Of a DNA stretch of 64,000 nucleotides, positions 34,506-64,000 are shown in pieces. The translations under genes and the position numbers were made by a program. This DNA comes from Microglena sp. YARC (taxonomy: Eukaryota > Chlorophyta > Chlorophyceae > Chlamydomonadales > Chlamydomonadaceae). The stretch is taken from assembly GCA_022414725.1 (NCBI GenBank), contig JAJSRW010001563.1:147001-211000 (forward strand). Reading direction: 5' to 3'. How positions within the stretch are numbered: position 1 is the first letter of the stretch; every line of letters begins with the position of its first letter. The notes under the pieces were generated by a model. The model saw only the letters and a program-made list of their open reading frames with translations, was not told the origin of the DNA and searched no databases.

Positions 34506-34509
34506 TTAT

Positions 34510-35040: not shown

Positions 35041-35063
35041 GGAATGTTTTGTCAACCATGCAG

Positions 35064-38412: not shown

Positions 38413-38479
38413 ATGCCTGCCTGCAGTTTCCCCTGACTAGGCTACACAGTGGCAATATGTTGTTATATAACCAACACAT

Positions 38480-38925: not shown

Positions 38926-38929
38926 TCAT

Positions 38930-39889: not shown

Positions 39890-39909
39890 TCATCGCTTTA
39901 AATAATGTA

Positions 39910-41589: not shown

Positions 41590-41740
41590 AGCACTTTGGT
41601 CTCCAAAGGCAAGTGCGTAGATGTCCTCATATCGCTCGACACAATGTCAATAGGTGTGCTTACTGCCGATCCATCACTCTTCAGGTTTCAAAGACGAGGG
41701 TGTATATTGGGTTGTATCACTCAACACAATGGGCCTCACT
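41590..41740 (-). repeat. Two copies of the end of Lon exon H and 3' UTR
   Basis: At about 41735-41668 and 41650-41595 the segment encoding [11 protein letters not shown] is present again. The nearer copy is degraded; the farther reads VERYEDIYALAFGDQS without the stop at the same place, so it might serve as an alternative C-terminus. Spacing is about 85 bp. Confidence 0.75.
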
Positions 41741-41771
41741 AACCACATTGCTACGGCCAATCCATCACCCT

Positions 41772-41894
41772 TCAAGCTCCAAAGGCAAGTGCGTATATTT
41801 CCTCATATTGCTCCACAAAGTGCACCTGGATGCCCTCCTTGATCTCCTGGCCAAGATCCTCATAGTCCGCCTTGTTGGCCGCAGGGAAAATACA
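41772..41894 (-). CDS. LON1: Lon exon H (C-terminus and stop)
   Basis: A 123-bp exon after acceptor TTGCCGCAG, in phase 0 with exon G. It encodes [20 protein letters not shown], then [20 protein letters not shown], and ends in TGA (41774-41772). This is the normal end of the Lon protease domain. Confidence 0.93.
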   Translation of the reverse strand, partial: CIFPAANKADYEDLGQEIKEGIQVHFVEQYEEIYALAFGA

Positions 41895-42402: not shown

Positions 42403-42434
<32 letters not shown>

Positions 42435-43899
42435 CCTTCACCAACCCAATTGTCTAGCTTCCACTCACCTTCACCACTCCTCCTCCTTTTCTCATTTCAA
42501 AGACGACCGCGTAGATCCCTAATACTCACTTGCTCGGCAAAATAATATTTTGGTTATACCCCCCCCCCCCCCCCCCCCCCCCCCCCACACACACAACACC
42601 ACACACACACAAATCAAACCACACACACACATTGGAACCACCTTCCACCCACCTTCTTCACACGACTCCCGCTTCCTCCTCCTGCCAGCAGCTTCTCCTT
42701 AACTCCCCCAATGGGTAGCACACGCCCCGTAAGTGTGACCTCCCCGGTCATTGCCAGGTCAGCAACGACAGGCTTGTTTAGGGCCAAGCTCAAAAGAGAG
42801 GTGATGAGGGTGCAGCCTGGAGGGGTAGGAGGGGGCGGGGGCAAGGGGTTGATGTTGATTTTGGAGTTGGTGGGGTGAGGGGTGTGTGGGTGTGAGGCGG
42901 TGTGAAAGGTGAGGATGTGTGGGGGAATGGTTGTGTGGTGTGGGGGGTTGGGTGGGGGGGTTGGTGAGGGGTGGGTGGGCTTTGGTGAGGGTGTGGATGG
43001 GGGATATGGCCGGTGAGGGGGGCGAGGGGAATGGGGGTGGGTTGGGAGTGTGGGTGGTGTGGGTGGGGGAGCAGCCTAGATGGGTGTGGTGGGTGGTGCG
43101 ACCACAGACCCACACATACAAACATATACTCTCACACACAACCCACCCACATATATACATATAAACCAACACACACCTGCACCGGATCTGTCTTTGGGCG
43201 TAGCCCCTGCCAGCACATGGATGTGGTTAGCGCTGGTAGAGATTTGAGTTTCTTCTTTTTACTCGGAAAACATCATTTGACTCCTTCCAACCCCCAACCC
43301 AACACACCCTACCACCCCACTCCAAACTCCAACCACACATATAACCCCACCCACACCCACACCTGCACTGGACTACCATCTTTGTATCATCAAGTAGCCC
43401 CCGCGGGCACATGGGCATGGATGGCGGCTCGTAAATTTATTGTTTGTACGTCGGAAAAAACCCATTTGAACCCCCCCACTTAAAATACACACACACCTCC
43501 CCCCCTCCCCCCCTTCCCCTCCCAACCCGGGTCCCCACACACCTGCACTGGGTCCATCTTAGGGCGTAGCCCCCGCTGGCACATGGACGTGAATAGCGCT
43601 GGTAGAGAAGACGCTTTTTTCATCTCGGAAAAACTCATTTGACTCCCCACGCAACCACTCACACCCCCAACTTCACCTCAACACCCCCACACATATAAAC
43701 CCACACCCACACCTGCACTGGGTCCATCTTTGGGCGTAGCCCCCGCGGGGACATAGACGTGGATGGCGCTGGAAGATAGCTTTTATGTTTTTACCCGGAA
43801 AAACTCATTTGACCCCCCCCCACCCCCCACTCACCACTTATAAACCCACTCACACTTATAAACACATACAAACACACTTACATACACATATGACCCCTC

Positions 43900-43947
<48 letters not shown>

Positions 43948-44546
43948 ACCCCCACACACCTGCACTGGGTCCATCTTTGGGCGTAGCCCCCGCCGGCACA
44001 TGGACGTGAATAGCGCTGGTGGAGAAGAAGGTGTTATTTGAGTCTCGGCTTTGAAGGAAAGCGCGTGCAAAGGTGTGCGCGATGGAAACACTCTCTTTGA
44101 ACACATCACCCAGCTGACCTGTTCGGGATGGGGTGTGTGGTGTGGTGTTGGGGGTGTTGGGGGTGGTTCTGTTTCCTTTTCAAGTTGCAGAAAAGCGCGT
44201 GCAAAGGTGTGCGCGATGGAAACACTCTCTTTGAACACATCAACCAGCTGACCTAACGGGTTGTGCTTATGTTATTTTTGTTATTGGTTTAAACCGTGTG
44301 ATTTGTAGAACTTTGCCTTGACACCCACCCACCCACCCACCACCCACCACCTACACACACAACCCCCTAACCCACCCACCTAGCCACACCTCCACAATCC
44401 AACCCCTGACCCCCCCCCCCCCTCCACACTCAAAACACATACCCCCCCCCCCCCCCCCCCCCCCCCCCCAAACACATACACCTAAAACACACGCACACAT
44501 AATAAACAAAATCAAAAAATTAAACCTTCCACACTCCCACACCTGT

Positions 44547-44581
<35 letters not shown>

Positions 44582-44873
44582 ACCCACCCACCCACCCACA
44601 CACACACACATAATAATAATACAAATACAAAATTAAACACCACACTCCCACACCTGTTGGGTTGAGTCGGGGTTGGGTTGGGATATTTTTGTGTGTTGCA
44701 ATGGACAAACTCTCTTTGAACACATCACCCAGCTGAACCTGTGGGTTTTTTTTTTTTTTTTTTTTTTGATGGTGACTTGTAGAAAAGTGTGTGCGAAGTA
44801 GTTTTGATTGTTTCAGTGTTGGTGAAAAGTTTATTTTTTATTTTTATATGGTGTGACATTTTTTATCTGATGT

Positions 44874-44928
<55 letters not shown>

Positions 44929-47900
44929 GCATACTAATACAACTAAAAAACCCTCCATACCTGTAATGACCAATGACCCCCTTTGCCAATCTCCACTGGG
45001 TGATGTGTTCCCCACTTGGGTTGTGTTGGTTGTGGGTGGTGGGTTAGTGTTAGATTGGGTTGGATTGGGTTGAGTCGGGGTTGGGTTGGGATATTTTTGT
45101 GTTGTTTTCCCCCTTGGATTGGTTTGGTATGGCTTTGTAGGAAATCGCGCGCAAAGGTGTGTGCGATAGAAACGCTCTCTTTGAACACATCACCCAGCTG
45201 ACCTGTTGGGATTGGTCGGGTTGTGTCCTTGTTGTGTTGGTTGGGTGTTGGGTTAGGGTTAGATTGGGTTGGATTGGGTTGCACACCGTACCTGTAATGA
45301 CCAAGGATCCCTTAGCCTCTCCACCCTGAACCTTGGCTGCCTCGATGTACAACGTACTGCCCCCCATGGCGGTCCAAGCCAGACCCATGACAACGCCAGG
45401 TGGCGTGGTCTCGTAGAAATTGTCTTTGGAAAAGGGGGCCTGCCCACAGAAGTCCTTGATGTTGGTGCTGGTGATGATGATAGGCTCACCGTTGTAGGGA
45501 GGGGGCTCAGGCGTTCTGCGTGGTGGTGGTGGTTTGGTTGGTGGTTATTACGGGTACGGAGGTTGGACTGAAAGCCAGGGTGGTGGGTGGGTGTGTTGGT
45601 TGTTGTTGGTGGGTGGTTTTGTTAATGTATAAGGGGGCCTGCACACATAAATCCTGAAAGCAGCCCAGGGGTGGGTGGGTGGGTGTGTTGGTTGTGGTGA
45701 TGATGATGGTGGCGTCACCGTGTAGGGAGGGGTCTCTCAGGCTTCTGTGAAGGGTTCAGGGTTTTTAGGGTTTTAGGCATGGGGTGTGACAGTTTTGGAG
45801 GGGGGCTCAAATTGTTTGTTTTTCTCTCTTCTTTTCTGGATTGATTTGTTGCTCTTGGATATACCGAAGTCCTTGATGGTCTGGTGGCTCTGGTGCTGGT
45901 GGTGGCAGGGCTGCACCAGTGTAGGGAGGGGGGGGGGGGGGGGGGGGGGGGGGCGGTGGGAGGGATCAGGCTTCTGTGTGTTGGTGTTGGTGTTGGTGTT
46001 GTTGTTTGGTGGGTGGTGGTGGTGCTTGTTGCTGTGATGTTGTTGCTGGTGGTGTGGTGGTGTGGTCGTGGTTGTGCTGGCTGTGGTGTGTGCTGTCGTT
46101 GTGTGGTGGTGGTTGTTGCTGGTGTGGTGGTGGTGGTGTTTGTGGTTTGTGGTGATGTATGCTTGGTGGTGGTGGTGGGTGGTGTGGGTTGGTGGTTCCT
46201 GGGTGGAGGTGGTGTGCTCATGTTGGTGTAGGTATAGGTTGTTGCGGGTGATGGTGTTGGTGTGGTTGGTGGTGGTGATGATGTTGGCTTCCAATTTAGG
46301 AAGGGGGCTAGTGGTGGTTAGGTGGTGTGGTCGTTGGTGGTTGTCTGTGGTGTTGGTTGTTGTGGCGTTGTGCTTAGTGTTGTTTTTGTTGATTGGTGGT
46401 GATGGCTGGTGGCGGGCTATGCTTGTGGCGAGGTGGGTTTCTTTCTTTCTGCTCACTCAGTGAAGGGGGGGGGGGAGGGTATATGCAGGCTTCTGTGTGG
46501 TGGTGGTGGATGGTGTTAATTGGGTGGGTGTGGTTGTTTGCTGGTGGTGTTTAGTGTGGTGGTGTTGTGGTGGTGGTGGGTGGTGTGTGGGTGGTGGTGG
46601 TGGTGGGAGGTGTGCTTGTGTGGAGTGAGTGTGGTGGTTAGGTTGTTGTGGTGGTGGTTGGTGACAGAGTTGCTGGATGGTGGGTGGATGTGTTGGTCGT
46701 GATTTTAGTGGTGGTGGTTGTTTGAGCCAGGGTGGTGGTTGGTTGGTGGTGGTCGTGGTGAGTGTGTGGTGGTGTGTGGTTAATGTTGCTAGTTTGGTGA
46801 ATGGTGGTGTGTGTGTCGGTGAGTGTGGTTGTCTGGTGGTGTGGTGGTGGTGAGTTTTGTGTGATGGTGGGTCTGGGTTGGTGTTGGGTGGTCTCAATCC
46901 AGTGAAGGGGGGGGGGGGGAGGGGGATCAGGCTTTCTGTGTGGTGGTGTGGTGGTTTGTGGTTGTTGCTGCTGGTGGTAGGTGTGGTGGTGGTGGTGGTG
47001 GTGGTGGTGGTGGGTGGTGTGTGGTTGGTGGTGGTGGGGTGGTGCTGTCGGTGGTGGTGGTGGGTGGAGTGGGTGGTGGTGGTGGTGTTGTGTGGAGGTT
47101 GTTGATTTGGTTGGTGGTGGTGGGGTGGTGGTCTGTGAAGGGGGGGGGGGGAGGGATGGCTTCCTGTGTCGTGGTGGTGGTGGTGGTGTGGTGTGGTGTG
47201 GGTGGGTGGGCTGGTGATGGTGGTGGCTGTTGTTGGTGTGGAGGGGTGGATGCCACCGCTAAGTTAGAGTGGTGGTGGGTGGTGGTGTGGTGGTGGCGGC
47301 TGGCGGCTCACCCAGTGGTTGGTTGCTAGTTGCGTGGTGGTGAGGTGGTGGTGGCGGGTTGTTTGCTGGTGGTGGGTGGTGGTGGTGGTGATGTTGGTGG
47401 GCTGGTGGTGGAGGTGGTGGTTGCTAGTTTGGGGAGATGGTGGTGGTGGTTGGTGGTGATGGGTGCTTGGTGGATGAAGTCTCTGTGTGGATGGTGGTGT
47501 TGGTTGGTGGTGGTGTTGTGTGGTGCCTGGGTGGTGGTGTGCTGCTTGTGCGGTGGTGATTATTGGTGTGGTGTTGTGGTGGTGGGGTTTGGTGGGTGGT
47601 GCTTAAGTGGTGGCTGGTGGTGGTGGGGTGGTTGTTGCTTGGGTGGTGGCACTACTGTAGTGGGGTGGTGGTGGTTGTGCTATTTGGTTGGGTGGTGGTC
47701 GGTGGTGGGGGTGCGGTTTTTTGCGTATCGTTGTGGTTGGCCTGGGGTGTGGTGGGCGCGCGGGATCGTCCACCTCTAGGGAGGGAGTTATTGGGGGGAG
47801 GATTAATCGCGTGTGTTGTGGTGCGTGGTTGTTGGTGTTGTGGTTGGCTGGGCGTTGGCCTGTTGGGCAGGGGCGTTGCGTGGCGGCTGGTGCGTGGGTG

Positions 47901-50900
47901 GGAGTGGGTGAGTGGGTCCCATTTGTGGGCATTGGTGTGGTGGTTGGTGGTGGTGGTGGTGATGTTGCATGGTTGGCGCTGTGCGGTTGTGTGGTGTGGG
48001 TGCGTGGTGCGGTTGTTGTTGGTGCTGGTGGTGGGTAGGTGATGCTATGTGTTGTGATGTTGTTGTGTGTTGGTGTTGGTGTGGTTTGTGGGTTTGGTGT
48101 GGCGTTGGGTATACGGTGGATGGTGGTTGGTGGTGTGGTGGATGTTGTTGTGTTCTGCTGTGTGTTGGTTGTGTGCGTGGTGGGGTTGGTGACGGCTTGG
48201 TGTTTGTTGGTGGTTTGGTGGGTGCCTGGTGGCGTGGTGGTGTTGGTTGATGTTGGTGCTGGTCTGTTGGCATGTGCTGGTCATATCTGTGTGGAATTGG
48301 GGGTGTGTTTGCATGGTGCCTGAGGATTGTCTGTTTTAGGTTTTTGTGTGGGTTTGTTTGTGTGGTGGAGTGAGCTGGTGGGTGCTCTGTGATGCTGTGT
48401 TGGTGGTGTGGGGGTGTAGTTGGGATGGTGCGTTGTGGTGTTGTGGTTGGATGGTCTGGATGCTGCTGTTGTTTTTGGTGGTGCTGGTGTTGTGTGGGGT
48501 TGTTGTGGCGTTGGTGTGGTGGTGGTGGTGGTGGTGATGTTGTGTTTGTTTGTTGGTGTGGTGGTGGTTGGTCCGCCGTCGGGTTGGATGGTTGTTTGGT
48601 GTTGGTTGGTGGCGTGTTTGTCAGGTGTGTTTGGTGGTGATGTTGCGTGTGGTGTGTTTTGGTGGTTGGTGGTGGTGGTGGTGTTGACTCTGTTGTTGTT
48701 GTTGTTGGGTGGTATTGTGGTGGTGGTGGTTGGTGGTGTTGTGGTGATGGGGGTTTGGTGTTGTTGGTGTTGGTGGCGTGGTGGTGTTGGTCGGTATGTT
48801 GGTGTTGCTTGCGTGTGGGTGGGTGGTGGATGGTGTTGTGGTGTGATGTTGTTGTTTTTGTTGTTGTTGTTTTGTTGTTGTTTTTTGGTTGTTGTTTTGG
48901 TTGTTGTTTGGTTTGTTGGTCGTGAGCGTGGTCGTGGTGCGTAGTGGTGGCTGCCGTCGGTGGTGGTGTCGGTAGTGTTGCAGTGATACCCTCAGTAGTG
49001 GTGGTGCTAGTGGGATGGTGGTGGTGGTGGCGCTTTGGTGGTGGTGGTGGTGCTAGTTGGTGTGGTGGTGGGGCGCTAGTGGGTGGTGGTGGTGGTGCAC
49101 ACTCGTAATGGTCCTGGTGTGGTGGCGCTAGTGGTGGGTGGTGGTGGTGGTGGCGCTAAGTGGTGGGCTGGTGGTGGTGGCGCTAGTGGTGGTGGTGTGT
49201 GTTGGTGCTAGTGGTGGTGGTGGTGGTCCTGGTGTGGTGCTGTGGTGGTGTGGTGGTGATGGTTGGAATGTCCTGGTGGTGGGGGTGACTAGTGGTGGTG
49301 GTGGTGGTGGTCTGTGTGGTGGTGGTCCTGGTGGTGGTGGTTAGTTGCTGTGTGGGGTCCTGGTGCGGTGGGTGGTGCCCCAGTGTGGTGGTGGTGGTGG
49401 TCCTGGTGTGTGGTGGTGCTTAGTGGTGGTGGTGGTGTGGTGGTCCTGTCCTAGGTTGTGGTGCTAGTGGTGGTGGTGGTGTCCTGTGTGTGGTGCATAG
49501 TGGTCGTGGTGGTGTGGTGTGTAATGGGTCCTGGTGCTAGTGGTGGTGTGGGTGTGGTGGTCCTGGTGGTGGTGGTGCTAGTGGTGGTGGTGGTGGTGGA
49601 TCAACATTAGTTTGGCGTGGCTTTGTTTAGGGTAGGACCTACCAGGCTCCACACTCTGAGCAACCCCAGATGGCGTGGCTTTGTCCGCACCAGTGCTAGT
49701 GGTGTGTAGTGGGCTGTGCCGTCGGTGGTGGCGTGTCGGTGGTGGTGTATGCGGTGGCAGTGATACCCTCAGTGGTGTTCCCATCGCTGCTGGTGGTGGT
49801 GGAGCTGTCGATGGGGGGGGTCTCCTGCCTCAGCAGGGTGGCGGGTGTGCGGATCGCGTTATGGCGGTGCTTGTGGTGGTGGCGGCAGGGGTGGTGGCAA
49901 TGACTGGAGTCGGTGGTGGTGTGTAACCTGACTCCACTAGCTTGAAGGCGCACTTCCTGTAAATCTTCTCTAGCTGCTTCTTCAAGTTCCGCACACCCCC
50001 GTGCCTCCCTACACAAGTGGGCGGGTGGGGTGGGTGGTGTGGTTGGTGGTTGGTATCTACTTCTCTCAAGTTTCACCCCTGCCTCCGCTACACAGTGGGC
50101 CGGCGGGTGGTGGGTGGGTTGGGTGGGCTTGTGGTTGTGGGTATACTGTCTTACGTTTCACACACCTGCCTCCCTACACAAGTGGGCGGGTTGGGTGGTG
50201 GGTGGTTGGAACGTGTGGTGGTGGTTGCACTCTATCTACTTCTTCAAGTTTCACACACCTGCCTCCCTACACATAGTGGCGGGTGTGGGTGGTGGGTGGG
50301 GTTGTTCAGTGTGGGCGGGTGGGGTGGGTGGGTGGTGGTAGTGGTGGGGTGGTGAGGTGGGTGGGTGGTGGTTGAACGTTGTGTGGTTCAGCACACCCTG
50401 CCTCCTTACACGCACACACACAAGTGGCGGTGGGTGGTGCTGGGGGTGGTTGAACGTTGTGTGGTTGGTTGGTTGGTTGGTGTTGGTTGGTTGGTCTGGT
50501 TGGTTGGTTGTGTGGTTCAGCACACCTGCCTCCTTACACACAGGTGTTCGGTGTGTGGTGGATGTTTGGGTTAGCTGGGTAGCTGGGGTAGCTGGGTAGC
50601 TGGGTATCTACTTTTCAAGTTTCGCGCACGAGGAGCTGCCTCCCTACACACACAAGTGGGTGGGTTTTGTGGCAAGTTGGGTTGGGTTGGTTTGGTGGTA
50701 AGTGGTTTTGGCGTTGGTTGGGGTTGGGTTGTTAAGGTGGTTGGGTGGATGGTTTGTGTGGTTGGGTGGTTGGTTGAGTGGCGGTTTGTGTATCCTGCCT
50801 CCACTAGCTTGAACACACACTTCCTGTAAATATTCTCAAGCTGCTTCATGTTGGAGCCTAGACCCTGTACTGCCCAAGTAGTTACCTTTCTTAGTCTGCC

Positions 50901-53900: not shown

Positions 53901-56900
53901 TTATCACAGAAAACACAGGAACAGCCTAAGTCCAGCGATGATTCTTTTATCTGGCATACAACAGAAAATAGCACGGACAGAGTCCCTACGTCGTCGAAGA
54001 TCTCTTTTTATCTGCATATCAGGCATAGAAAACACAGGAAGCAAGTCGTTTTCTAGTTAGCGATAGATCTCTTTTTATCTGGCATACACAGAAAAACACA
54101 GGAACAAGTCCTAGTCAGCGATAGATCTCTTTTTATCTGGCATACACAGAAAAACTCTTATTGGAACAAAGTCTAGTCTAGCGTCAGCCGTGCGATAGAA
54201 CCTCTTTTTAATAATGAAAAACAGAAAACATAGAAAACATAGAAAAAGAGTATAAGCCCATTGCATCCTAATGATACACACACACATATATCATAATATA
54301 TATAGTTATATGTATACAGGTCATTGACAGCTAACGCTTACGTATATACTACAATATAATATAATAGGTAATATATATAGTTTAGTTTAAGTTAGTTTAG
54401 TTAGTAATAAGCCCATAGACAGCATCCTATATATATACATGTAACTAATAGCTCTACTATCAACTAACTATCAAAACTATAACACGCTACTTTCTACATA
54501 CTAAGAGTACAAGCACTGATTGTGTATTGATTGACCAGCTACTCTTGAATCTATAGTTACAACACATTGTGCCTTATGCACGTAAATAAATACATATGAA
54601 CATTAAGAACTTATTAACAAGGCCGGTAGAGGTTGAGGAGGGCCAGGCCTTGGGCCATCTAAGCCGGAGATGTCGATATAACCAAACAGGTCACACTTGA
54701 ACAGACATCCTGCTACAGTTTAATTTTTTTCGAAACAGTTGTGAAAGTTCATACCCCACCTACCTCCCTGCATACCCAAGACAGCCTGATGACCTCCATT
54801 CGATCCAGCAAGAAGCCCTGGGTGGTACGGCGCAATCACATTGGTGTACGAGACCAAGGAGCACACCCAATTGTTTTTCAAATTCACAAATATTTTACCC
54901 ACTGTAAAAAACAACCTGAACTTGAAAACTGCCCAAATACCAAATACCTCCTCCACACCCACCAACCCACGGGCCATACACAGACCCCAAGCACCACAAC
55001 CAACCCACCAACACACACCCCAACACCACAACACACACACCCACACCAAACCACACCACCCACGTGCCACCACCCACCCACAACACCTACCTCACTGCAA
55101 TATGACCCAAAGACAGCCTGATGACCTCGCATTCGAGTCTAGCAAGGGCCATTGGGATGGTATCCTAATCACATTGGCCGTACACATCAAACATGAACCT
55201 TGGATACATCGATGGGGCCACATCCAGGTAGTGATCCATGAGAGGTCGAGTCTGCTCTGGGTTAGCAGCGTCCAGCAGGGCAAGAGGCTGGGTCGCCTGC
55301 GTAAAATAATTCAATTTGATTTAATTTAATTTTGATTTAATTTAATTTTTTGATTTTAATTAATGGATAATTTAATTTAATTAACCCTTGGATACATCGA
55401 CTGGCGCACATCAGGTAGTGATCCATGAAAGGTCGAGTTTTGCCTCTGGGTTAGCAGTCTTCTTGCAGGGCAAGAGGCTGGTCGGCCTGCGTAAACAATA
55501 ATGTATTTGATTTGCATTTAATTTTGATTTAAATTTAATTTTGAATTTAAATTTAATATAATTTAATTTAACCTTGGACACGTTTTGAATGGGCACATCC
55601 AGGTAGTGATCCCATGAAGGTCGAGTTCTGGGCTGGTCTAGTAGCTCCAGCAGGGGTTCGGAGGCTTGGGCTTGCCTGCAGGTGTGGTCCATTTTGAGTT
55701 AATTTAAATTTGGATTTAATTTTAATAAAAAACCTTCCACACAAACATATTTTGGACACGTGAATGGGAACGTCTAGGTGGTATGATCCATGAAAGGTCG
55801 AGTTCTGCTCTTGTCTAAGTAAACTCTTGGTCTAGACGTCTATGGTCTATGTAACTCCAGCAGCGTGGCAGGAGGCTGGGTCGCCTGGGTGGGATATTAT
55901 ATTTAATATTTTGAATTTAATTAAATTTAATTCTGATTTAATTAATTTTCCTAGAATTTAATTTAATTAAACACTTGGAAGCCGATGGGAGGAGCGATCC
56001 AGGTTATGATGGCCATCTGAAACAATTTCTTACGGCAGGCGGGTCGCGCTGCGTAAAATTTAATTTCATTTGAAATTTAATTTAATGTAATTTATTTGAT
56101 TTAATTTGACTTAATTTTTATGTAATTTAATTGATTTAATTTGATTTAAGAAAACCCTGCACGAACTGGCGAGACACGTGATGGGAACATCGCAAGTAAT
56201 GTCCATGAAGGTCGAGTTCTGCTCTGGGTCCAACAGCTCCAGCAGGGCAGAGGCTAAGTCGCACTGCGTAAAAAATATTTAATTTGTTTTAACTTTTCTA
56301 TCTCTTGGGAGTTTAATTTAATTTCCAATTTTATTAAATTTAATTTAAACCTTGGACCCCGTCGTGTGCACATCCAGGTAGTGATAAATGAAGGTCGAGT
56401 TCTGCTCTGGGTCCAACAGCTCAGCATGGGTGGCGATGCTCGGTTTGGGGGGATGCTGGGTTTGGGGGGATGCGCTGGGTCCAACAGCTCCAGCAGGGTG
56501 GATGCTGGTTGGGTGGGATGCTCGGTTTGGGTGGATGCTGGGTTTGGGGGGGGAGCTGGGTCCCAACAGCTCCCCAGCAGGTGGATGCTGGGTCGCCTGC
56601 GTGTCCATGCAATTCAATTTTATTTTAATTTATTTGAAGGGTGGACGCTGGGTTTGGGGGGATGCTCGGGTTTGGGTGGATGCTGGGGTTTGGGGGGATG
56701 CTGGGTCCAACAGCTCCCAGCAGGCGGATTGCTGGGTCGCCTGAGTGGCAATTAATATTAAAATTGATTTTTTTTGATTTACTTTAAATTAATTTAAGAA
56801 AACACGTTGCAAAGCGAACAGAACCTTGCTCACGTTGATGGGAACATCCATCAACGGTCGAGGTCTGTTCTGGGTCTAGCATGCCCCAGCAGGGCGGAAT

Positions 56901-59900
56901 GCTGGGGTCACCTGCGTGTTCATTTGATTTAATTGTGTGTTGTTTAGCTTTTAGCCATGAAATGGTCCATCAAGATCGAGTTTTATGTTCTGGGTGCTAG
57001 CAGCCCCAGCAGGGCCGATGCTGGTAACCTGGAGGTGGTGGTGTGTGGTGGTGGTGGGGTGGGTGGTGTGTGGGGGTGGGGGTGGGGTCGGGGGGTGGTG
57101 GTGGTGGGCGTGGGTGGTAAGGGGTGGTGGTTGGTGGTGGGTGGGGGACGTGGGTGGTGGGGTGGTGGTGTGGTGGGGTGGGTGGTTGGTGGTGGTGGGG
57201 TGGGTGGGGTGGGGTGGTGGTGGTGGGGTGGTGGTGGTGGGGTGGGTGGTTGGTGGGTGGGGGGTGGGTGGTGGGTGGGTGGGGGTGGTGGTGGGGGGGG
57301 TGGGTGGTGGTGTGGGGGGTGGGGGTGGTGGCGGTGGTAGTGGGCGTCATATAGGCAGTTTGTATAATTTGCATATATATTATGTCGTAGTTTTGTTGTG
57401 TTTTTCCTCCTTGGCCAGGGTCCATGAAGGTCGTGTTCAGTTCTGGTCCTGCAGCTCCAACAGGGCGGACGCTGGGTCAACTGGTGGTTGAGGTGGTGGT
57501 GGTGGGTGTGGGTGGGTGGTGGGTGGGTGGGTGGGTGGGGTGGGTGGTGGTGGTGTGGTGGGACGCTGGGTCGCTGGTGGTCGAGGTGGTGGTGGGGTGG
57601 GTGGTTGGTGGTGGGGGTGGGGGGTGTGGTGGTTGGTGGTGGGTGGGGGTTTGGTGGTGGTGTGGGGGTGGTTGGTGGTGGTGGGGTGGGTTGGTGGTGG
57701 GGGTGGGCGGGGTTGGTTGGTGGTTGAGGTGGTGGTGGTGGGGTGGGTGGTTGTGGTGGTGGTGGTGGGGGGGGTGGTGGGAGGTGGTGGTGGTGGTGGT
57801 GGGTGGTGGGTGGAGGTGGTGGGGGTGGTTGGTTGGTGGGGGTGGGGGTAGGGTGGTGGGGTGGAAATGGGTGACTGGTTGTGTGGTGGGAGGTGGGGGT
57901 GGGGTGGGTTGGTTGGTGGTGGTGGGGGTGGGGGGTGGTGTGGTGGGGGTGGGGGGTGGTGGTTGGGTTGGTGGGTGGTGGGGTGGGTGGTTGGTGGTGG
58001 TGGTGGGGTGGTGGGGTGGATGGTGGTGGGTGGTTTGGTGGTGGGGTGGGTGGTTGGGGGGAGGTGGGGTGGTTGGTTGGTGTGGGGTTCGTGGGTGGTG
58101 GTGTGGGCGTGTTGGTTGGTGGTCTGTGGGTGGGGGTGGTGTGGTGGTGGTGGTAGTGGGGGATGGGTGCGTTGGAGTGGGGTGGTAAGGTGGGGTGGGT
58201 GGTTGGGTGAGGTGGGTGGGTGGGTGTGTGGGGTGGTGGGCAGGTGTGGTGTTGGTGGGTGGGTGTGTGTAGGGTGGTGGTGGTTGGTGGGTGGGTGGTT
58301 GGTGGTTGGTGGGGTGGGGTGGTTGGTGGTGGTGTAGTTGGTGTGGTGGGGTGAGATGGGTGGTTTGGTGGCGGTGGAGTGGTTGGTGTGTGGGATGGTG
58401 GGGTTGCGCATCAGTGGTGGTTGGTGGTGGTGGGTGATGGGGATGTGTTGTGGTGGTAGGTAGTGGTTGTGTATGGGTTGTTTCATATAGCAGTTTGTAT
58501 AATACTGGGCGGACGCTGGGTCACCTGGTGGTGAGGTATACAACAGGGTACTTCAAATGGCCAGATTGGCCAGTGCTTTAGGCGCACTTGAAAACAAAAA
58601 GCGCTTGTAGTGCAAAAAGCGAAAAAATGCTTGCAGCGCGCCACAGGGAGTTGGCAAAAAACTGCGCTTAAAGCGCAGAGGGGGTCAAAAAGTCAGCGCT
58701 CAAAAGCTCAAAAGCGCGCGCTTTGAATTACCCTGGTGGTGAGGTATACAAGTAAATAAGGCATAACATATTTAATGGCACAGCAATCTGCTGCCTAAAT
58801 GAATGATCCCTGGTGCGGACTACTCCATTGTACCTGGCAATGTACACATTGCATGTGGGTGGGGGTGGGAGGGGGGGGGGGGGGCAGGACTTGTCAAGTC
58901 TGCTGCCACTGATGATCCTGGTGCCCTGTACTTGCCATTGTCCTGGCAGTACACACGCGCATGCGTGGGTAGGGGTGGTTTAGGGTGGGGGTGGCATTAA
59001 TGGTGGGGGTGGGGGTGACAGGCACCAAGGCTGACATAAATGGTGGGGGTGGGGTGGGGGGGGCAGGACATGTAGCACATATTTAATGGCACAGCAAATA
59101 GCACACATTTAAAATAGCACACATTACAAGTACACATTTAAAATATCACACATTACAAGTACAATTAAATAGCAAACACTACATTTAAATGTTACCAACC
59201 TAAGTGTGGCAGCGTCCAAGCTTGTTGATTTCATCGATCAGCACCAAAGAATTGCTTGTTCCTGTGCTCTTCTTCTTCTCCTTCTTGTTATTTTTACAAT
59301 TAAATAAAGCACACATTCAAATTAAAAATTGCACACCAACCTAAGTGTGGCCCACGCTCCAAGCTTGTTGATTTCTCATCCGTGGGATATTATTTTCCAC
59401 TACATATAGCGATCGCTAGTTTTTTTGACCCCGTTTTGGAGAAATTATCGGCTATAAACAGGTGTATCAAAAAGTAGAACATATAAATGCAAACCGAACT
59501 CTGTGTGGCACGTCCAAGAGCTTGTCGATTCCATTGCGTCAACACCAAAAAGGATTGATTGTGCCTGTCCTCTTCTTACATATTATTATTATTTTTACAA
59601 TTAAAATCGAGGTGGGGGCAGGAAAAACAATATCCGACCCTAATGTCAGTGATTATTTTTTCAAATTCTGAAATTGGGTTTTCTTCTAGCTTTATGGTTT
59701 TAGGGCTCCTCAGGGACAGTGTTTTTAGTTCTTTCTGTAGCTTTTTGTTTTTTCTTTTTTGCTATTTAGGGGCGATTGAGGGCAAAAATAAACAAAATAC
59801 TTTTTTGTTTTTGCTTTTTTTATATAGCGATATTTTTTGCTAAAACGGGTCATAAACTAGCGATCGCTATGTATAGCGGTTAAATAAAAATCCCTGCCCC

Positions 59901-62900
59901 ATGCCCGCAGATGTGAAGAGCTTGTTGAGAGGGCATGAAGAATCTGGTCTTATTTAATTTATTTGGCCGCAGTAAGAAAAAAATTATGGGCCTCAAAAGT
60001 TGGGGTGGTGGGTGGGTGGTGAGGGAAAAACTGGAATTTAAGAAAAATTAGGTACTTGTCAAACTATTGTTTTTTCATAGCGCACAAAATGACATGTGAT
60101 GGGAGTGGAACTGGGGTGTTCGCAGTATACAGTCCAGTCTTCCATTGGTGGCTATTAGGGTTCCCCCCCCCCCACCCCCACCCACCCACCCACGCACCTA
60201 ACTCCCCCCCCATTCCGCCACTCCTTCAACTCCCCCGCACATGCACTCAGTTGTGCCCCCCCCCACCCCCAACCGCTACCCCCACCCCCTATCCCACACC
60301 GCCCCGCCCCAGCCCCCCCCACTCAACATGCCCTGCCTTCCACGAGCACCACCCCCTAATCCGCCCCCAGGACCCCTACCCCCACCCTCAACCCGCTCAC
60401 CGCTACCAGCCGCCCCCAGACCCCACCCCATCCTTCTCCAACCATGTGGATGCCGCCCTGCTCAACCCCACCCACCCGTGCCCCTATCTCCACCCGGAGC
60501 TGACACAGTAGGGGGTGGTAAGTTCCCCGCACTAGTTTGACGAGGACATGATAGGCTCAGACTGGGCTTCCACTCAGCTCAGCCCCCACCACTCACATCC
60601 CCACCCCAGCCCCCTACTCCCAGACCCACCCTACCAGTCCACACCCTATCGTTCCACGCCCACTCAACACATCACAAAACTCAACCCACCCCACGCTTCC
60701 CACATCGCCCACACCCGCTTCTATTCCTCACCCCCACACTTACCGTACCCCCACAAGCCAACTCACCCCCCAACCCAACAACCCTACCCCCACCTCACGT
60801 CACCTACAGACTCACACCTAGGCTACCCTTCCAGGCTGACACATGTAGATGGTGGTAAGGCACGAGTTGAGGATATGATTGCTCAGACTGTCCGTTCCAT
60901 TCAAACCCCCCCCTACTGCCCCCCCCCCCTACCCCACACCCCATATCCCCACACCCATACCCCCCCCCCCCCCCCCGCCCCCTACCCCCCCCCCCCCCCC
61001 CCCCCCCCCCCACTCAACCTCGCCCCACCCGGCTATACTGTCCTCACCTCACACACCTCACCTCAATATATCACCCCACCCATGACCACTCAACCCCGTC
61101 CCCATTGCTCCCTACCCCCCACCCCAAACTCAACCCCGCCCCCTGCCCCCTAGCCGCCACCACAACCACACCCCACTCACCGCCAAAGCCACTCCGCCCC
61201 CTACCTCCACCCCACCCAATCACACCACACTAGCAAACAATTCAATTTTTAAATATACCAAAACAACTGTGTGGCAAGGGTGTCCAAGCTTGTCATTTCA
61301 TCAATCAGCAACAAAGGATTTTGTGTCTGTGCATCTTCTTCTTCTCCTTATTGTTATTTTTACAATTTCGAAATAAAGCACACACCAGATTCAAATGTAA
61401 ATGCACCAACTAAGTGTGGCCACGTTCCAAGCTAGTTGATTTCATCCAGGGATATTATTTTCCGCTACATATAGCGATCGCTAGTTTTGACCCCGTTTTG
61501 GAGAAATTATCGCTATAAACAGCTATAAAAAAAGTAAAAAAGAAGTTGTTTTCTTCTTTTTGCCCTAAAAAGTAACTAAGGGCTGTAAACAGCTATAGAA
61601 AGCACTAAAACGATGTCCCTGGAGGAGGCCTACAACCATAAAGCTAGGGAAAACCCACTTTCAGATTTGAAAACAAAATCACTGATTTGACAACAAAATC
61701 ACTGATTTCATCAATCAAGACCAGATAATTGCTTGAATTATAATATAATTGCCAATGATATAATATGATGTGCACACTTCCCAAATGTATTGATATATTA
61801 TGATGAATTATAATATAATTGCACACTTCCAAATGTATTATAAAATATGATGAATTATAATATAATTGCACACTTCCAAATGTATTATAAAATATGATGA
61901 ATTATAATATAATTGCACACTTCCAAATGTATTATAAAATATGATGAATTATAATATAATTGCACACTTCCAAATGTATTATAAAAATATGATTTATAAT
62001 ATAATTGCACACTTCCAAAATGTATTATAAAATATGATGAATTATAATATAATTGCACACTTCCAAATGTATTATAATATATGATGAATTATAATATAAT
62101 TGCACACTTCCAAATGTATTATAAAATATGATGAATTATAATATAATTGCACACTTCCAAATGTATTATAAAATATGATGAATTATAATATAATTGCACA
62201 CTTCCAAATGTATTATAAAATATGATGAATTTATAATATTAATTGCACACTTCTAAACTGTATTATAAAATATGAATGAATTATAATATAATTGCACACC
62301 TCCAAATGTATTATAAAATATGATGATTATAAGTATATTGCATTTCATAATAATCATGTATAAAAATATAATTCATAATATAATTGGCACACTTCCAAAT
62401 GTAAACTTGTATCCGCCTGTGTCGAATTTAAAATTAAGCAGACATTATATTAGTAGGCAGACTTTAAGTGAAACATTTTACCAACCTGTGTGGGCCACGT
62501 CCCCCCTCCACCCCACCCCACCCCACCCCAACCACCCCATTACCACCCCAACCCCACCGCCTTTTCGCACCCCACCCGCTACCCCATTTCCACCCACCCC
62601 CACCCCATTCCACCCGCCCCCCACCCATTCCCAACCCTCCCACCCGGATACCCACCCCCCGCCACCCCATCCACCCCCCCACCCCCCATTCCACCCTCCC
62701 CCCCACATTCCCCCCCCCACGCGCCACCAACCCCACCACCCATTCCACCCCAACCCACCCCATTCCACCCAACCCACCCCATTCCCATTACCACCCCATC
62801 CACCACCACCCCACCCACCCCACCCCACCCCTAGCAAACCAATTCAATTTTAAAATTATACCAACCCTGTGTGGCCACGTCCAAGCTTGTCAATTTCATC

Positions 62901-63711
62901 AATCACGCAGTTCACAAAGGATTGCTTGTGCCTGTGCTCTTCTTCTTCTCCTTATTGTTCTTTTTACAATTAAATAAAGCACACATTCAAATTAAAAATT
63001 GCACCAACCTGTGTGGCCTCGTCCAAGCTTGTCAATTTCATCGATCAAGTACCAAAGGAATTGCTTGTGGCCTGTGCTCTTCTTCTTCTCCATTATTGTT
63101 CTTTTTACAATTAAATAAAGCACACAATTCAAATTAAAAATTGCACCAAACCTGTGTGGGTCCTCGTCCAAGGCTTTGTTCAATTTCATCATTCGATCAA
63201 TACCAAAGGATTGCTTGTGCCTGTGCTCTTCATTCTTCTCCTTATTGTTCTTTTTTTAAGATTAATAAAGCACAGGGACATTCAATTAAAAATTGCACCA
63301 ACCTGTGTGGCCTCGTCCAAGCTTGTCAATTTCATCCGGATCAGTACCAAAGGATTGCTTTGTGCTGTGCTTCTCTTCTTTCTTCCATTATTGTTCTTTT
63401 TACAATTAAATAAAGCACACATTCAAATTAAAAATTGCACCAACCTGTGTGGCCTCGTCCAAGCTTGTCAATTTCATCGATCAGTATAAACAAAAGGATT
63501 GCTTGTGCTGTGCTCTTCTTCTTACTCCAGAGCTTATTGTTTCTTTTTACAATTAAATAAAGCACACATTCAAATTAAAAATTGCACCAACCTGTGTGGC
63601 CTCGTCCAAGCTTGTCAATTTCATCGATCAGTACCAAAGGATTTCTTGTGCCTGTGCTCTTCAAGCATTGCACGATCTTTCCATGGCATAGGCTCGACAT
63701 ATAAGTTTCGC
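41772..63711 (-). CDS. LON1: Mitochondrial-type Lon protease, C-terminal part (exons A to H), 5' end outside window
   Basis: Lon is an ATP-driven serine protease that degrades damaged proteins in the mitochondrial matrix (or in peroxisomes). Eight exons on the minus strand give, in order, AMPGKIVQ-like and [14 protein letters not shown] (Walker B), GDPASALL and [10 protein letters not shown] (AAA+ core), a DEK-SIARKY segment, REAGVRNL (sensor-2 region), [29 protein letters not shown] (catalytic Ser), [14 protein letters not shown] (catalytic Lys) and the C-terminus [11 protein letters not shown]. Walker A and the N-domain would lie beyond 64000. Introns are 0.76 to 8.3 kb and consist of tandem repeats plus copies of the exon edges. 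Exons E to H are intact; A to D carry indels, so it is either a pseudogene or affected by assembly error. The gene symbol follows plant usage. Confidence 0.93.
41900..42214. repeat. (GT)n microsatellite in Lon intron G-H
   Basis: GTGTGTGA and GGGTGGGTCAGTAGGTGT units. Val/Cys or His/Thr frames here are artefacts. Confidence 0.9.
42215..42290 (-). repeat. 5'-edge copy of Lon exon H
   Basis: NKADYEDL followed by a frameshifted QEIKEG-like segment. It is directly preceded on the coding strand by a piece resembling VERYDQIY, the distal part of exon H. The order distal-then-proximal marks the junction of a tandem duplication. Confidence 0.75.
42395..42595 (-). repeat. 3'-edge copies of Lon exon G and C tracts
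   Basis: Segments AGGAGGAGTGGTGAAG|GTGAGTGG (about 42470-42490) and GGTTGGTGAAG|GTGG (about 42440) repeat the end of exon G with its donor. Poly-C tracts lie at about 42408-42433 and 42560-42586. A further degraded piece near 42495-42540 resembles the end of exon H. Confidence 0.65.
42653..42816 (-). CDS. LON1: Lon exon G (catalytic lysine)
   Basis: An intact 164-bp exon between acceptor CCTCCAG and donor AAGAAG|GTGGGT. It encodes [20 protein letters not shown], then [20 protein letters not shown], then [14 protein letters not shown]. The lysine in GGVKEK is the second member of the catalytic dyad. The last ten residues are unusual for the family (normally a KRAGV-like helix) and may hide a compensated indel. 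Confidence 0.93.
43177..43780 (-). repeat. Four 3'-edge copies of Lon exon F with donors
   Basis: Copies of [18 protein letters not shown] followed by donor GTGCAG|GTGTG end at 43713, 43543, 43363 and 43177, spaced 170-190 bp apart. Three read cleanly; the 43363 copy has a small deletion at TPKDG, and the 43177 copy reads [16 protein letters not shown]. Each also has an upstream CCAG|CGCTA that could serve as an acceptor, so each could act as a 56-bp mini-exon. The catalytic serine codon is present in most copies. Confidence 0.93.
43960..44118 (-). CDS. LON1: Lon exon F (catalytic serine)
   Basis: An intact 159-bp exon. The acceptor is CGAACAG and the donor is TGCAG|GTGTG, phase 1 at both ends. 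It encodes [20 protein letters not shown], then [20 protein letters not shown], then [12 protein letters not shown]. The serine of PKDGPSAG is the nucleophile of the Ser-Lys dyad. Confidence 0.95.
44160..45202 (-). repeat. Three 5'-edge copies of Lon exon F with acceptors
   Basis: Copies starting at 45202, 44738 and 44252 each have an acceptor (CCAACAG, CCCACAG, CCGTTAG) followed by [23 protein letters not shown] coding sequence. The outer and inner ones are almost complete, reading on to ARDFLQ or ARAFLQ; the middle one is broken after SLSIA. CA repeats, C tracts (about 44440-44470 and 44550-44580) and a 20-base T run (44748-44767) separate them. Confidence 0.9.
44956..44992 (-). repeat. 3'-edge copy of Lon exon E
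   Basis: GGTCATTGGTCATTACAG|GTATGG repeats the end of exon E (TTGGTCATTACAG|GTACGG), including the donor, about 330 bp into the downstream intron. Confidence 0.8.
45292..45515 (-). CDS. LON1: Lon exon E (start of protease domain)
   Basis: An intact 224-bp exon between acceptor CACGCAG and donor ACAG|GTACGG, phase 1 at its 3' end. It encodes 74 residues including [33 protein letters not shown] and [20 protein letters not shown]. The substrate-facing loop and first strands of the Lon protease fold are complete. Confidence 0.93.
45530..49900 (-). repeat. Lon intron D-E: GTGGTGG array with 5'-edge copies of exon E
   Basis: About 4.3 kb dominated by GGT/GTGGT repeats on the plus strand. Copies of the acceptor CACAG followed by AAGCCTGA and CCCTCCCT, the first bases of exon E, lie near 45750, 45975, 46490, 46935 and 47165. 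Longer degenerate matches are at 45610-45715 and 45855-45930. A degraded TPPGVV-like piece occurs at about 49610-49690. Confidence 0.85.
49928..50008 (-). CDS. LON1: Lon exon D (sensor-2 region)
   Basis: After acceptor TTGTGTAG the exon encodes a REAGVRNL segment with two small indels, and then [20 protein letters not shown], the helix that links the AAA+ small domain to the protease domain. The donor is TCAG|GTTACA. Confidence 0.82.
50060..50860 (-). repeat. Array of edge copies of Lon exon D (about 7 copies)
   Basis: Copies of an acceptor (TTGTGTAG or similar) followed by GGAGGCAGGTGTG, read as REAGV, lie near 50090, 50180, 50275, 50405, 50540 and 50645. At 50795-50855 a copy of the exon's second half reads [27 protein letters not shown] repeats separate them. 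Confidence 0.82.
50868..51165. repeat. 44-bp minisatellite in Lon intron C-D
   Basis: Seven nearly identical copies containing TGCCCAAGTAGCTACCTTTC and TTAGTCTGCCCTGTAC. It is not CRISPR-like because units are contiguous without spacers. Confidence 0.95.
51170..51475. other. Non-repetitive part of Lon intron C-D
   Basis: About 300 bp of unique sequence between two tandem arrays. No Lon segment or other coding region was recognised. Confidence 0.5.
51475..53010 (-). repeat. Array of 3'-edge and intron-start copies of Lon exon C
   Basis: The motif GCAG|GTACGAACC followed by CCTGTCTGCATCTA recurs at about 52600, 52815 and 52965. Below 52.5 kb it continues in more degenerate form, with GGTGCGGTTAACTAGGTGCA (plus-strand reading) repeated about nine times between AACCAACC tetranucleotide runs. 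CA-rich sequence with further traces occupies 52.65-53.25 kb. Confidence 0.7.
53313..53450 (-). CDS. LON1: Lon exon C (linker between AAA+ core and small domain)
   Basis: After the acceptor TGTGTATCCCAG the exon encodes a DEK-x-SIARKY-like segment damaged by indels, and then [18 protein letters not shown], which matches the usual stretch before REAGVRNL. The donor is near CTCCA|GTACGA. Confidence 0.65.
53635..54215 (-). repeat. 58-bp array of 5'-edge copies of Lon exon C (about 10 copies)
   Basis: Each unit contains a strong acceptor (TTTTTCTGTGTATGCCAG) followed by about 25 bp of exon (reading D-K-R-S-I-A). The copy at 53711 reads [10 protein letters not shown] in frame. Units differ by indels. 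Confidence 0.88.
54216..54745. other. AT-rich part of Lon intron B-C
   Basis: TATATA-rich sequence with no exon copies recognised, followed by a short non-repetitive stretch (54540-54740). Confidence 0.6.
54765..54860 (-). repeat. 3'-edge copy of Lon exon B
   Basis: Downstream of exon B the segment [11 protein letters not shown] with the donor GGAG|GTAGGT is present again, preceded by a degenerate TNVI region. Confidence 0.8.
55091..55296 (-). CDS. LON1: Lon exon B (AAA+ core)
   Basis: The acceptor TTTTACGCAG precedes GDPASALL. The exon continues through MDHYLDV, a CTANVI-like sensor-1 strand and EVIRLS, and ends at donor GAG|GTAGGT (206 bp). Several one- and two-base indels break the frame, for example near DVP and after CTANVI. 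Neighbouring copies carry the expected bases at some of these places. Confidence 0.8.
55400..58530 (-). repeat. Array of 5'-edge copies of Lon exon B (about 13 copies)
   Basis: Copies of the acceptor plus [20 protein letters not shown] coding sequence, several extending to STFMDHYLDVP, start near 55490, 55675, 55890, 56050, 56265, 56475, 56600, 56745, 56920, 57035, 57480, 57565 and 58525. Many keep the acceptor TTTACGCAG|G. AATTTAATTT-type AT-rich sequence separates the copies below 56.4 kb and G-rich repeats separate those above. Confidence 0.88.
57030..58480. repeat. GGTGGTGGGTGG array in Lon intron A-B
   Basis: About 1.4 kb of G-rich sequence on the plus strand (C/A-rich in the Lon transcript), interrupted at about 57340-57500 by a non-repetitive piece that contains an exon-B edge copy. 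Long Gly/Trp/Val or His/Pro/Thr frames are artefacts. Confidence 0.95.
58544..58735. mobile_element. MITE, CAGGGTA family, copy 2
   Basis: A 192-bp element starting CAGGGTACTTCAAA and ending TTTGAATTACCCTG. It is flanked by the perfect 16-bp direct repeat GTGGTGAGGTATACAA (58528-58543 and 58736-58751). The GCGC-rich interior matches the element at 2906-3101 in the opposite orientation. It inserted into the distal end of the exon-B edge array. Confidence 0.82.
59381..59896. mobile_element. MITE-like element, CAGGGATATT family, copy 1
   Basis: The left end (GGGATATTATTTTCCACTAC, then TAGCGATCGCTAGTTT) is repeated in inverted orientation at the right end (AAACTAGCGATCGCTA, then TAAAAATCCCTG), giving terminal inverted repeats of about 50 bp. 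It sits inside an exon-A edge copy in the Lon intron. It has no coding capacity. Confidence 0.7.
60160..61230. repeat. C-rich region in Lon intron A-B with two copies of a 70-bp segment
   Basis: CCCCACCC-type sequence with long C tracts (about 60959-61010). Two copies of a non-repetitive segment lie at about 60495-60565 and 60833-60900. The second can be read on the plus strand as [20 protein letters not shown], a protein-like sequence of unknown origin. Confidence 0.7.
61447..61621. mobile_element. MITE-like element, CAGGGATATT family, copy 2
   Basis: It begins CAGGGATATTATTTTCC and includes TAGCGATCGCTAGTTTTGAC, as in the copy at 59.38 kb. It is inserted at the same point within an exon-A edge copy (after TTGATTTCATC). 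Its distal part (about 61610-61672) matches, inverted, the interior of copy 1 (59655-59725). Confidence 0.6.
61735..62400. repeat. 47-bp AT-rich minisatellite in Lon intron A-B
   Basis: About thirteen copies of a unit with TTGCACACTTCCAAATGTAT and ATTATAATATAA. Copies differ mainly by single-base indels. Confidence 0.95.
63592..63711 (-). CDS. LON1: Lon exon A (Walker B region)
   Basis: After the acceptor GTTGCAG the exon encodes an RR-x-YV-like start with one frame error, then [15 protein letters not shown] and [14 protein letters not shown]. The Asp-Glu pair is the Walker B site for ATP hydrolysis. The donor ACAG|GTTGGT gives a phase-1 intron that fits exon B. Of the family of copies in this region it is the only one that carries both the 5' and the 3' part. 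Confidence 0.85.
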
Positions 63712-63764
63712 CTGCAACTCGTGTATTTGGGTTTCATAATTTGTTATTTACAATTTCTGATGCT

Positions 63765-64000
63765 CTTGCAAAGAATTGCACACAATCTTCCCTTAGCATG
63801 GTAATAACAACAAACATCCGCCTGCGGGTGTGCTTTGGGTTTTAATTTTTTTTTTAATAACAAACTTTCCAAAACGCTGTTTTGATGTGATTTACGGGTT
63901 AGATGGATTTATTGCAATCATGCCATGCTATTTTTTATTTGTTTAACAGGTTTTGCATTTTTGATCATGCCTGTGCTCTTCACCACGCATTGCACGATGC
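63765..64000 (-). repeat. Copies of the 5' edge of Lon exon A
   Basis: At 63821-63765 a copy has its own acceptor (CACCCGCAG), the RR-like start, and a degenerate GKIV segment. At about 63962-64000 another copy reads IVQC and KSTG and is cut by the window edge. These lie upstream of exon A on the coding strand. Confidence 0.7.

What the first reader, a model, noticed from the sequence alone, without database searches (positions are those of the whole stretch)
41590..64000. Lon gene whose introns are built from copies of exon edges
For at least seven of eight exons, copies of the exon's 5' end with its acceptor lie in the upstream intron, or copies of its 3' end with its donor lie in the downstream intron, and often both. 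Examples: exon F has three acceptor-side and four donor-side copies; exon B about 13 acceptor-side copies and one donor-side copy; exon A about 11 donor-side and at least two acceptor-side copies; exon C about 10 acceptor-side copies. The pattern implies introns growing by recurrent tandem duplication across splice junctions. I know of no described gene with this systematic arrangement, though that is from memory. It would leave each intron with many competing splice sites.
Basis: partly seen in the sequence, partly recalled or inferred. Interest (0 to 1): 0.93.

Follow-up and report, generated by a model that had tools for sequence, protein, structure and literature searches.

The report
Algal introns filled with exon-edge copies
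In this alga the non-coding gaps inside a Lon protease gene, and inside several unrelated genes, hold rows of decaying copies of the neighbouring exon's edge, apparently seeded by duplications across splice junctions that then multiplied.

Summary
The window carries the 3' part of a mitochondrial Lon gene (minus strand). It is not special to Lon: the same genome (568 Mb, unnamed, green lineage) shows it in chaperonin genes on several chromosomes and in a second Lon gene, with cleaner sequence. Of 53 placed junctions in six genes, 24 have copies: 41 acceptor copies all upstream, 49 donor copies all downstream. In 12 of 17 arrays nearly all copies share one exon breakpoint, so these look like one founding duplication, then amplification. 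Copies drift: their AG/GT are neither purged nor kept. Arrays at exon edges exceed random placement (21 of 33 versus 5-11 in five well-modelled genes), but less or not at all by other methods. Best reading: introns grow by amplified junction-crossing duplications, tolerated because half-exons lack a partner splice site. There is no RNA evidence. Lon's contig is insertion-rich, probably unpolished.

The parts
63592..63711 (-). Lon exon A ([30 protein letters not shown]), donor CAG|gttggt after 63592; start placed by eye
   Evidence: translation; donor
59172..63506 (-). 12 donor-side copies of exon A's 3' end; the first five lie in a 142-bp-period array (62842-63662)
55091..55296 (-). Lon exon B ([14 protein letters not shown]... 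to IRLSGYIAV), acceptor cag|GCGACC; frameshifted as assembled; 3' end placed by eye
55385..58527 (-). 12 acceptor-side copies of exon B's 5' part upstream of it
   Evidence: self-comparison
53693..54208 (-). 9 acceptor-side copies of exon C, period about 58
53300..53466 (-). Lon exon C (..[20 protein letters not shown]..); noisy, limits approximate
51539..52991 (-). 11 copies of the sequence around exon C's 3' end, downstream of it
49905..50020 (-). Lon exon [30 protein letters not shown] (limits approximate), with a related copy at 50847-50709
45292..45442 (-). Lon exon [24 protein letters not shown]...GSLVITG, donor CAG|gtacgg; start approximate
44185..45214 (-). 3 acceptor-side copies of exon F (45214-45135, 44747-44691, 44262-44185)
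43960..44118 (-). Lon exon F ([20 protein letters not shown]...GPSA)
43157..43752 (-). 4 donor-side copies of exon F's 3' end
42653..42816 (-). Lon exon (G)[17 protein letters not shown]...SRVKK
41772..41894 (-). Last Lon exon ([14 protein letters not shown]...ALAFGA) with stop codon 41774-41772
41594..41731 (-). 2 copies of the last exon's 3' end beyond the stop codon
41973..42297 (-). Copies of last-exon pieces upstream of it (42297-42259, 42268-42208, 42012-41973), including 3'-end pieces on the upstream side

Best explanation
The introns grow by local tandem duplication. A founding event copies a stretch of roughly 60-300 bp that crosses an exon-intron junction (up to about 180 bp of exon plus adjoining intron). 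That unit is then amplified head to tail, away from the exon, by slippage or unequal exchange. The intact exon stays at the end of the array: the last copy for an acceptor, the first for a donor. The other copies become intron and decay. They are tolerated because a half-exon usually carries only one splice site, so exon-definition splicing (short exons, long introns) pairs the two sites flanking the real exon and passes over the rest. Shown: the copies, their side, one common exon breakpoint in 12 of 17 arrays, drift without purging or keeping of splice sites, presence in several genes and chromosomes. Inferred: the amplification mechanism, exon definition, and that the real exon's sites are the ones used.
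For: Side rule: 41 of 41 acceptor copies upstream and 49 of 49 donor copies downstream over 53 junctions (27 acceptors, 26 donors; 13 and 11 of them have copies; reversed control 2 hits). Common breakpoints: of 17 arrays with two or more copies, 12 have at least three quarters of their copies ending within 6 bp of one exon point, e.g. 12 of 13 in the C6 Lon gene (59-65 bp), 5 of 6 at 112 bp, 4 of 4 at 29-30 bp, 4 of 5 at 43-45 bp; six of the 12 rest on two copies only. Drift: copy-copy differences 0.203/0.129/0.212 by codon position against 0.199 on the intron side; splice dinucleotides kept 0.76 (acceptor, rank 9 of 39) and 0.72 (donor, rank 21 of 39) in the chaperonin genes. Whole-exon copies 0 of 25 chaperonin exons. 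Clean second Lon gene on C6. Arrays denser in gene spans (83 in 82 kb) than in their flanks (25 in 60 kb) (my sums over its 11 genes). Copies beyond the Lon stop codon suggest that a border of coding constraint is enough.
Against: Exon definition is not tested; no RNA data. Four of 17 arrays have mixed overhangs (36-73 bp at G2 4379, 17-71 at G2 9800, 87 and 180 at G2 12084, 33-64 at G3 3053) and one spreads over 54-70 bp, so one event per array is not universal. A short Lon exon occurs nine times whole, and last-exon pieces break the side rule. Of the 25 chaperonin exons tested for whole copies, 22 are longer than the median unit (137 bp), so their lack of whole copies says little about purging. 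The excess at exon edges depends on method: 21 or 19 of 33 against 4.9-10.8 expected, but 11 of 33 against 4.3-9.8 with Tandem Repeats Finder (P 0.002 to 0.39), and 6 of 46 against 5.1 in six poorly modelled genes (P 0.41; with 30-bp slack 12 of 46 against 6.2, P 0.009). Genes G7, G8 and G11 have no exon copies and G1 has them at 1 of 5 segments. Window 29000-41000, outside Lon, also has 7 arrays in 12 kb.
Confidence: 0.66

Rival explanations
1. Plain neutral repeat growth with no preference for exon edges: tandem arrays arise everywhere in unconstrained DNA, and those that happen to cross a junction are merely tolerated.
For: Junctions are covered less than intron interiors (35% against 57%, exon interior 13%; 94 approximate junctions). 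TRF arrays show little excess. The six poorly modelled genes show none without slack. Copies also lie beyond the stop codon. Window 29000-41000 has 7 arrays in 12 kb.
Against: 21 of 33 arrays contain a junction against 5.1-10.8 expected, still 6.6-11.5 expected with introns shrunk to one unit per array (P at most 3e-4); all 11 genes 24 of 81 against 14.6 (P 0.003). Arrays are sparser in gene flanks and in window 1-29000.
Confidence: 0.32
2. Assembly or sequencing artefact: noisy long reads or misassembled repeats made false copies.
For: Lon copies are insertion-rich (59 to 11 on the exon side), and Lon sits on a 224-kb contig.
Against: Chaperonin copies lack that signature and differ mainly by substitutions (exon side 468 substitutions, 38 deletions, 14 insertions); second-Lon copies are clean by eye; these lie on scaffolds of 18.6-195 Mb. 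Identities of chaperonin copies to their exon run from 63 to 93%, unlike read errors.
Confidence: 0.05
3. The copies are working alternative or mutually exclusive exons, or spare splice sites kept by selection.
For: Most copies keep AG (34 of 41) or GT (40 of 49). At least six C6 Lon copies match the exon's protein pattern without a stop. A short Lon exon occurs nine times whole.
Against: Retention is ordinary among neighbouring dinucleotides in the chaperonin genes. Copy-copy differences lack a third-position excess over first positions. Most copies are half-exons.
Confidence: 0.07

Closest known systems
Potato RdRp gene: tandem duplication across an intron-exon boundary (PMC4974935; text part 1 of 5 and passages read)
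   Same: A tandem duplication crosses an intron-exon boundary; most splice signals are inherited from the parental junction.
   Different: One event in one gene that made a new intron, shown by RNA reads; here many arrays in several genes lengthen existing introns, without RNA proof.
Intron gain by tandem duplication of an AGGT exon segment (Rogers 1989; Hellsten 2011, both as cited in PMC4974935)
   Same: Tandem duplication supplies splice sites inside a gene.
   Different: There the new intron is made from exon sequence; here the intron already exists and grows from units of intron plus exon edge.
Tandem exon duplication with mutually exclusive splicing (PMC9013439, start of abstract in search listing only)
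   Same: Exon sequence in tandem copies.
   Different: Whole exons of which one is chosen there; mostly drifting half-exons here.
Introners (PMC9860276, start of abstract in search listing only)
   Same: Many introns of one genome carry repeated sequence.
   Different: Elements that copy themselves into many genes; here each array found comes from its own neighbouring exon.

Membership tests
Mitochondrial Lon protease (LONP1-type) | Lon proteolytic domain matching mitochondrial Lon | tested here: met
   204-residue spliced C-terminal part matches mitochondrial Lon structures at about E 1e-70 and green-lineage Lons best (named hits 60-67% identity); PF05362 is listed on the hits. N-terminal part not examined by search.
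Tandem duplication across splice junctions | Head-to-tail copies containing the junction, on the side predicted (acceptor upstream, donor downstream) | tested here: met
   90 of 90 copies on the predicted side; spacing and overhang. Exception outside that set: last Lon exon.
Intron gain by AGGT duplication | Intron sequence itself derived from an exon, absent in relatives | not testable with these tools
   No relatives of this genome are held; the units here contain pre-existing intron sequence.
Mutually exclusive exons | Whole exon copies with both splice sites under coding constraint | tested here: not met
   0 of 25 chaperonin exons have whole copies, and copy-copy differences look neutral. 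One short Lon exon has whole copies; constraint not tested there.
Introners or other mobile introns | The same element in many unrelated introns | tested here: inconclusive
   Junction copies were sought only within 6 kb of their own exon and found there. A 1.5-kb Lon query gave 171 matches in the genome, itself included; these were not sorted.
Exon-definition splicing | Splice sites paired across short exons | not testable with these tools
   Architecture fits (curated chaperonin exons about 90-480 bp, introns 494-3366 bp) but no RNA or splicing assay.

The most novel reading that the evidence does not exclude
Exon-intron borders in this genome are preferred seeding sites for satellite-like amplification inside transcribed genes, so that introns are literally manufactured from their own exon edges by a gene-coupled duplication process, and the splicing machinery has come to ignore large numbers of intact decoy splice sites.
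Probability: 0.33. Interest if true: 0.88.

Novelty: new variant of a known kind. Interest (0 to 1): 0.74.

Why it matters
How introns become long is usually ascribed to transposons and simple repeats (recalled). Here a genome seems to lengthen introns by amplifying units that straddle splice junctions, which leaves many near-intact splice sites next to real ones. That is a natural experiment on how the spliceosome picks the right site among local copies, and on what makes exon borders prone to duplication. It also warns gene predictors, which may call the copies as exons.

Tried and rejected
Tried without result: identifying the species (reverse-transcriptase search, best hit 47% identity; genome-size paper search, 0 papers); relatives in viral contigs (none confirmed); a hairpin between GT-rich donor ends and AC-rich acceptor ends (own pairs better than the mean of others in 12 of 24 introns; energies -86.5 against -85.1 for shuffled), not supported. 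Considered and rejected: selection keeping or purging decoy sites; a gradient of identity with distance from the exon (none seen by eye). Of ten paper searches, eight bore on the pattern; their listed titles and abstract starts showed no report of exon-edge arrays in several genes of one genome. One paper was opened. Most subscription papers are not in that library.

Limits of my tests: junctions were placed by eye from profile-hit edges in five chaperonin genes (G2-G6) plus four acceptors and four donors of Lon; junctions that I could not place were left out, and only clean Lon junctions were used. Six other chaperonin genes (G1, G7-G11) were left out because their exon models were poor; they are. 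The 11 genes use 52 of the 64 profile matches. Three exon limits in the anchoring tests (G3 exon 2 end, G5 exon 3 and exon 5 starts) are guesses. G4 enters with two exons.

Full report
What the sequence is. The minus strand from about 63711 down to 41772 encodes the 3' part of a mitochondrial Lon protease. The clean C-terminal exons joined (204 residues) match mitochondrial Lon structures at about E 1e-70 and, among named proteins, green-lineage Lons best (67% over 93% to Haematococcus lacustris, about 60-63% to land plants, which listed the best 120 of 8000). The window is C10:147001-211000 of a 568,105,699-base genome in 2390 contigs, with C1 to C6 of 195, 95, 63, 58, 46 and 18.6 Mb and C10 of 224 kb. 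A search with the C-terminal part found one full set of these exons, on C10, a second, more distant Lon on C6, two short partial matches on C4 and three weak ones elsewhere. No tool names the organism; 'green lineage' is inferred.

The observation. Self-comparison and Tandem Repeats Finder show arrays throughout 41-64 kb. Profile searches seeded from seven exon edges recover 12, 12, 9, 11, 3, 4 and 4 copies besides the exon, with no hit on reversed sequence. The gene continues upstream of the window: in C10:211001-221000 further Lon exons in arrays are seen by eye; one of about 67 nt occurs nine times with both ends.

Not only Lon. Chaperonin (Cpn60/TCP-1) exons were located with PF00118 (64 matches) and 11 genes fetched. 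Of 52 profile-hit segments, 25 have copies nearby (one of the 52 is itself a copy). Genes on C1, C2, C3 and C5 show it; G7, G8 and G11 show none and G1 one of five. In the second Lon gene (C6) an exon beginning GGGCTGCGACATGCC is preceded by copies that mostly keep CAG (seven occurrences, the exon included, by a protein pattern; 13 copies by BLAST).

The side rule. In five chaperonin genes with good exon models plus Lon, 27 acceptors and 26 donors were placed. An 80-bp probe over each junction was compared with 6 kb on either side. 13 of 27 acceptors and 11 of 26 donors have copies; 41 acceptor copies are all upstream, 49 donor copies all downstream; the reversed control gave 2 hits, both at one GT-rich Lon donor. 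This is what tandem duplication across one junction must give; it would be broken by whole-exon duplication, which 0 of 25 chaperonin exons show. Lon's last exon, not in this set, has two 3'-end pieces upstream.

Founding events. With probes reaching 250 bp into the exon, 17 junctions have two or more copies (G2-G6 and one C6 Lon junction). In 12 of the 17, at least three quarters of the copies end within 6 bp of one exon point: 12 of 13 at 59-65 bp (C6), 5 of 6 at 112 bp, 4 of 4 at 29-30 bp, 4 of 5 at 43-45 bp, 3 of 4 at 47-48 bp, 3 of 3 at 101-106 bp, and six arrays with just two agreeing copies. One array spreads over 54-70 bp and four are mixed (36-73; 17-71; 87 and 180; 33-64 bp). Local alignments can end early, which blurs this. 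Independent duplications would end at different places, so most arrays look like one founding event plus amplification, with exceptions. Spacings between neighbouring copies run from 45 to 500 bp, most between 60 and 300. Overhangs of whole arrays run from 1 to 180 bp.

The copies drift. Exon-copy differences by codon position are 0.129, 0.088, 0.196, as expected if the exon is constrained and the copy is not; copy-copy differences are 0.203, 0.129, 0.212 with 0.199 on the intron side. The low second position is unexplained, perhaps composition; weak constraint is not excluded. AG is present in 34 of 41 acceptor copies and GT in 40 of 49 donor copies. In the chaperonin genes this is ordinary among dinucleotides around the junction (rank 9 and 21 of 39); in Lon, with 9 and 14 copies, it ranks 5 and 7 of 39. 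So decoy splice sites are not removed, and not clearly kept. Copies and pairs are not independent, so I give no P values here.

Are exon edges preferred? Junctions are covered by copies less often than intron interiors (35% against 57%; 94 approximate junctions in 12 genes), but much intronic array sequence belongs to arrays that start at exons. In five well-modelled genes 21 of 33 arrays contain a junction (79% of array bases) against 5.1-10.8 by random placement; with stricter scoring 19 of 33 against 4.9-10.5 (P at most 3e-4 in both; an earlier version with an entropy filter 21 of 29 against 8.9). Shrinking introns to one unit per array still leaves 6.6-11.5 expected. With other choices the excess weakens: TRF 11 of 33 (P 0.002-0.39); six poorly modelled genes 6 of 46 against 5.1 (P 0.41) or 12 of 46 against 6.2 with 30-bp slack (P 0.009); all 11 genes 24 of 81 against 14.6 (P 0.003) or 36 of 81 against 17.5 with slack. 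Missing small exons would hide anchoring in those genes. I take a preference as likely, not proved. Arrays are denser in gene spans than in their flanks (83 in 82 kb against 25 in 60 kb) and than in window 1-29000 (3 arrays, half of one part masked), but window 29000-41000 has 7 in 12 kb and stretches on C6 and C4 have up to 15 per 10 kb (one C6 stretch, largely N, has none). Flanks may include unmodelled exons.

Sequence quality. In Lon the copies carry many single-base insertions (exon side 59 insertions, 11 deletions in 1084 columns; chaperonins 14 and 38 in 3442), and the exon B copy that joins the downstream coding sequence is frameshifted as assembled. The C-terminal exons are clean. The likely cause is unpolished long reads in repeats on this contig (inference). 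Exact Lon copy numbers and frames should not be trusted; the pattern does not rest on them.

How it likely works. A duplication of about 60-300 bp across a junction leaves the coding exon intact and adds one half-exon to the intron. Repeats then expand and shrink by slippage or unequal exchange. Selection sees little, provided splicing still pairs the two sites around the real exon. With short exons and long introns that is what exon definition does, since a half-exon has no partner site at exon distance. This last step rests on established knowledge of splicing (recalled), not on data here. The copies beyond the Lon stop codon suggest that the border of constraint, rather than the splice site as such, is what matters, which favours tolerance over a splicing-driven mechanism; the excess in genes and at edges points the other way. 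Slippage itself was not tested (no microhomology analysis).

Known ground. A tandem duplication across an intron-exon boundary is described for one potato gene (PMC4974935, part 1 of 5 and passages read), and tandem exon duplications are well known (listings). Eight paper searches on the pattern listed no report of a genome where many introns are lengthened by arrays of their own exon edges; I saw titles and abstract starts only, in an open-access library.

Noticed in passing
L027 5357-5552 and L028 4834-5029 (C4 at 4.10 Mb and 14.0 Mb): Two loci 9.9 Mb apart share a 1.87-kb stretch at 98.6% identity that contains a Lon exon F-like piece (71% at protein level) with a second, weaker piece beside it; Lon exon sequence seems to have been carried elsewhere.
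   Followed up: partly
window introns and L031-L039: Introns tend to be G+T-rich at the donor end and C+A-rich at the acceptor end (mean 0.59 falling to 0.38 by deciles over 24 introns).
   Followed up: partly
L033/L034 (gene G3), donor of exon 4: An apparent GC-AG intron (CAG|gcaagt) in a chaperonin gene, placed by eye.
   Followed up: no
window 16492-18616 (-): Reverse-transcriptase-like ORFs of a LINE-like element; relatives of the 16492-17976 ORF carry PF00078 and include Gonium (35%) and Parachlorella (44%) proteins. An ORF at 14186-14854 may belong to it; not searched.
   Followed up: partly
window 29468-30229 (+): ORF that looks Copia-like by recalled motifs; no search was made.
   Followed up: no
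window 21000-24900: Long repetitive stretch read as CPAVCPALPYALPYA-type frames on one strand and QGIRQGRAYGRA-type on the other.
   Followed up: no
L040, L041 and L046/L047 (genes G7, G8, G11): Chaperonin genes on C4 and C2 with no exon-edge copies at their known segments; why they are spared is unknown.
   Followed up: no
G000:C1:60765490-60765865: An MCM-family exon is followed 26 bp downstream by a second match to the same profile part (15-94 then 56-92), perhaps another donor-side copy; letters were not available.
   Followed up: no
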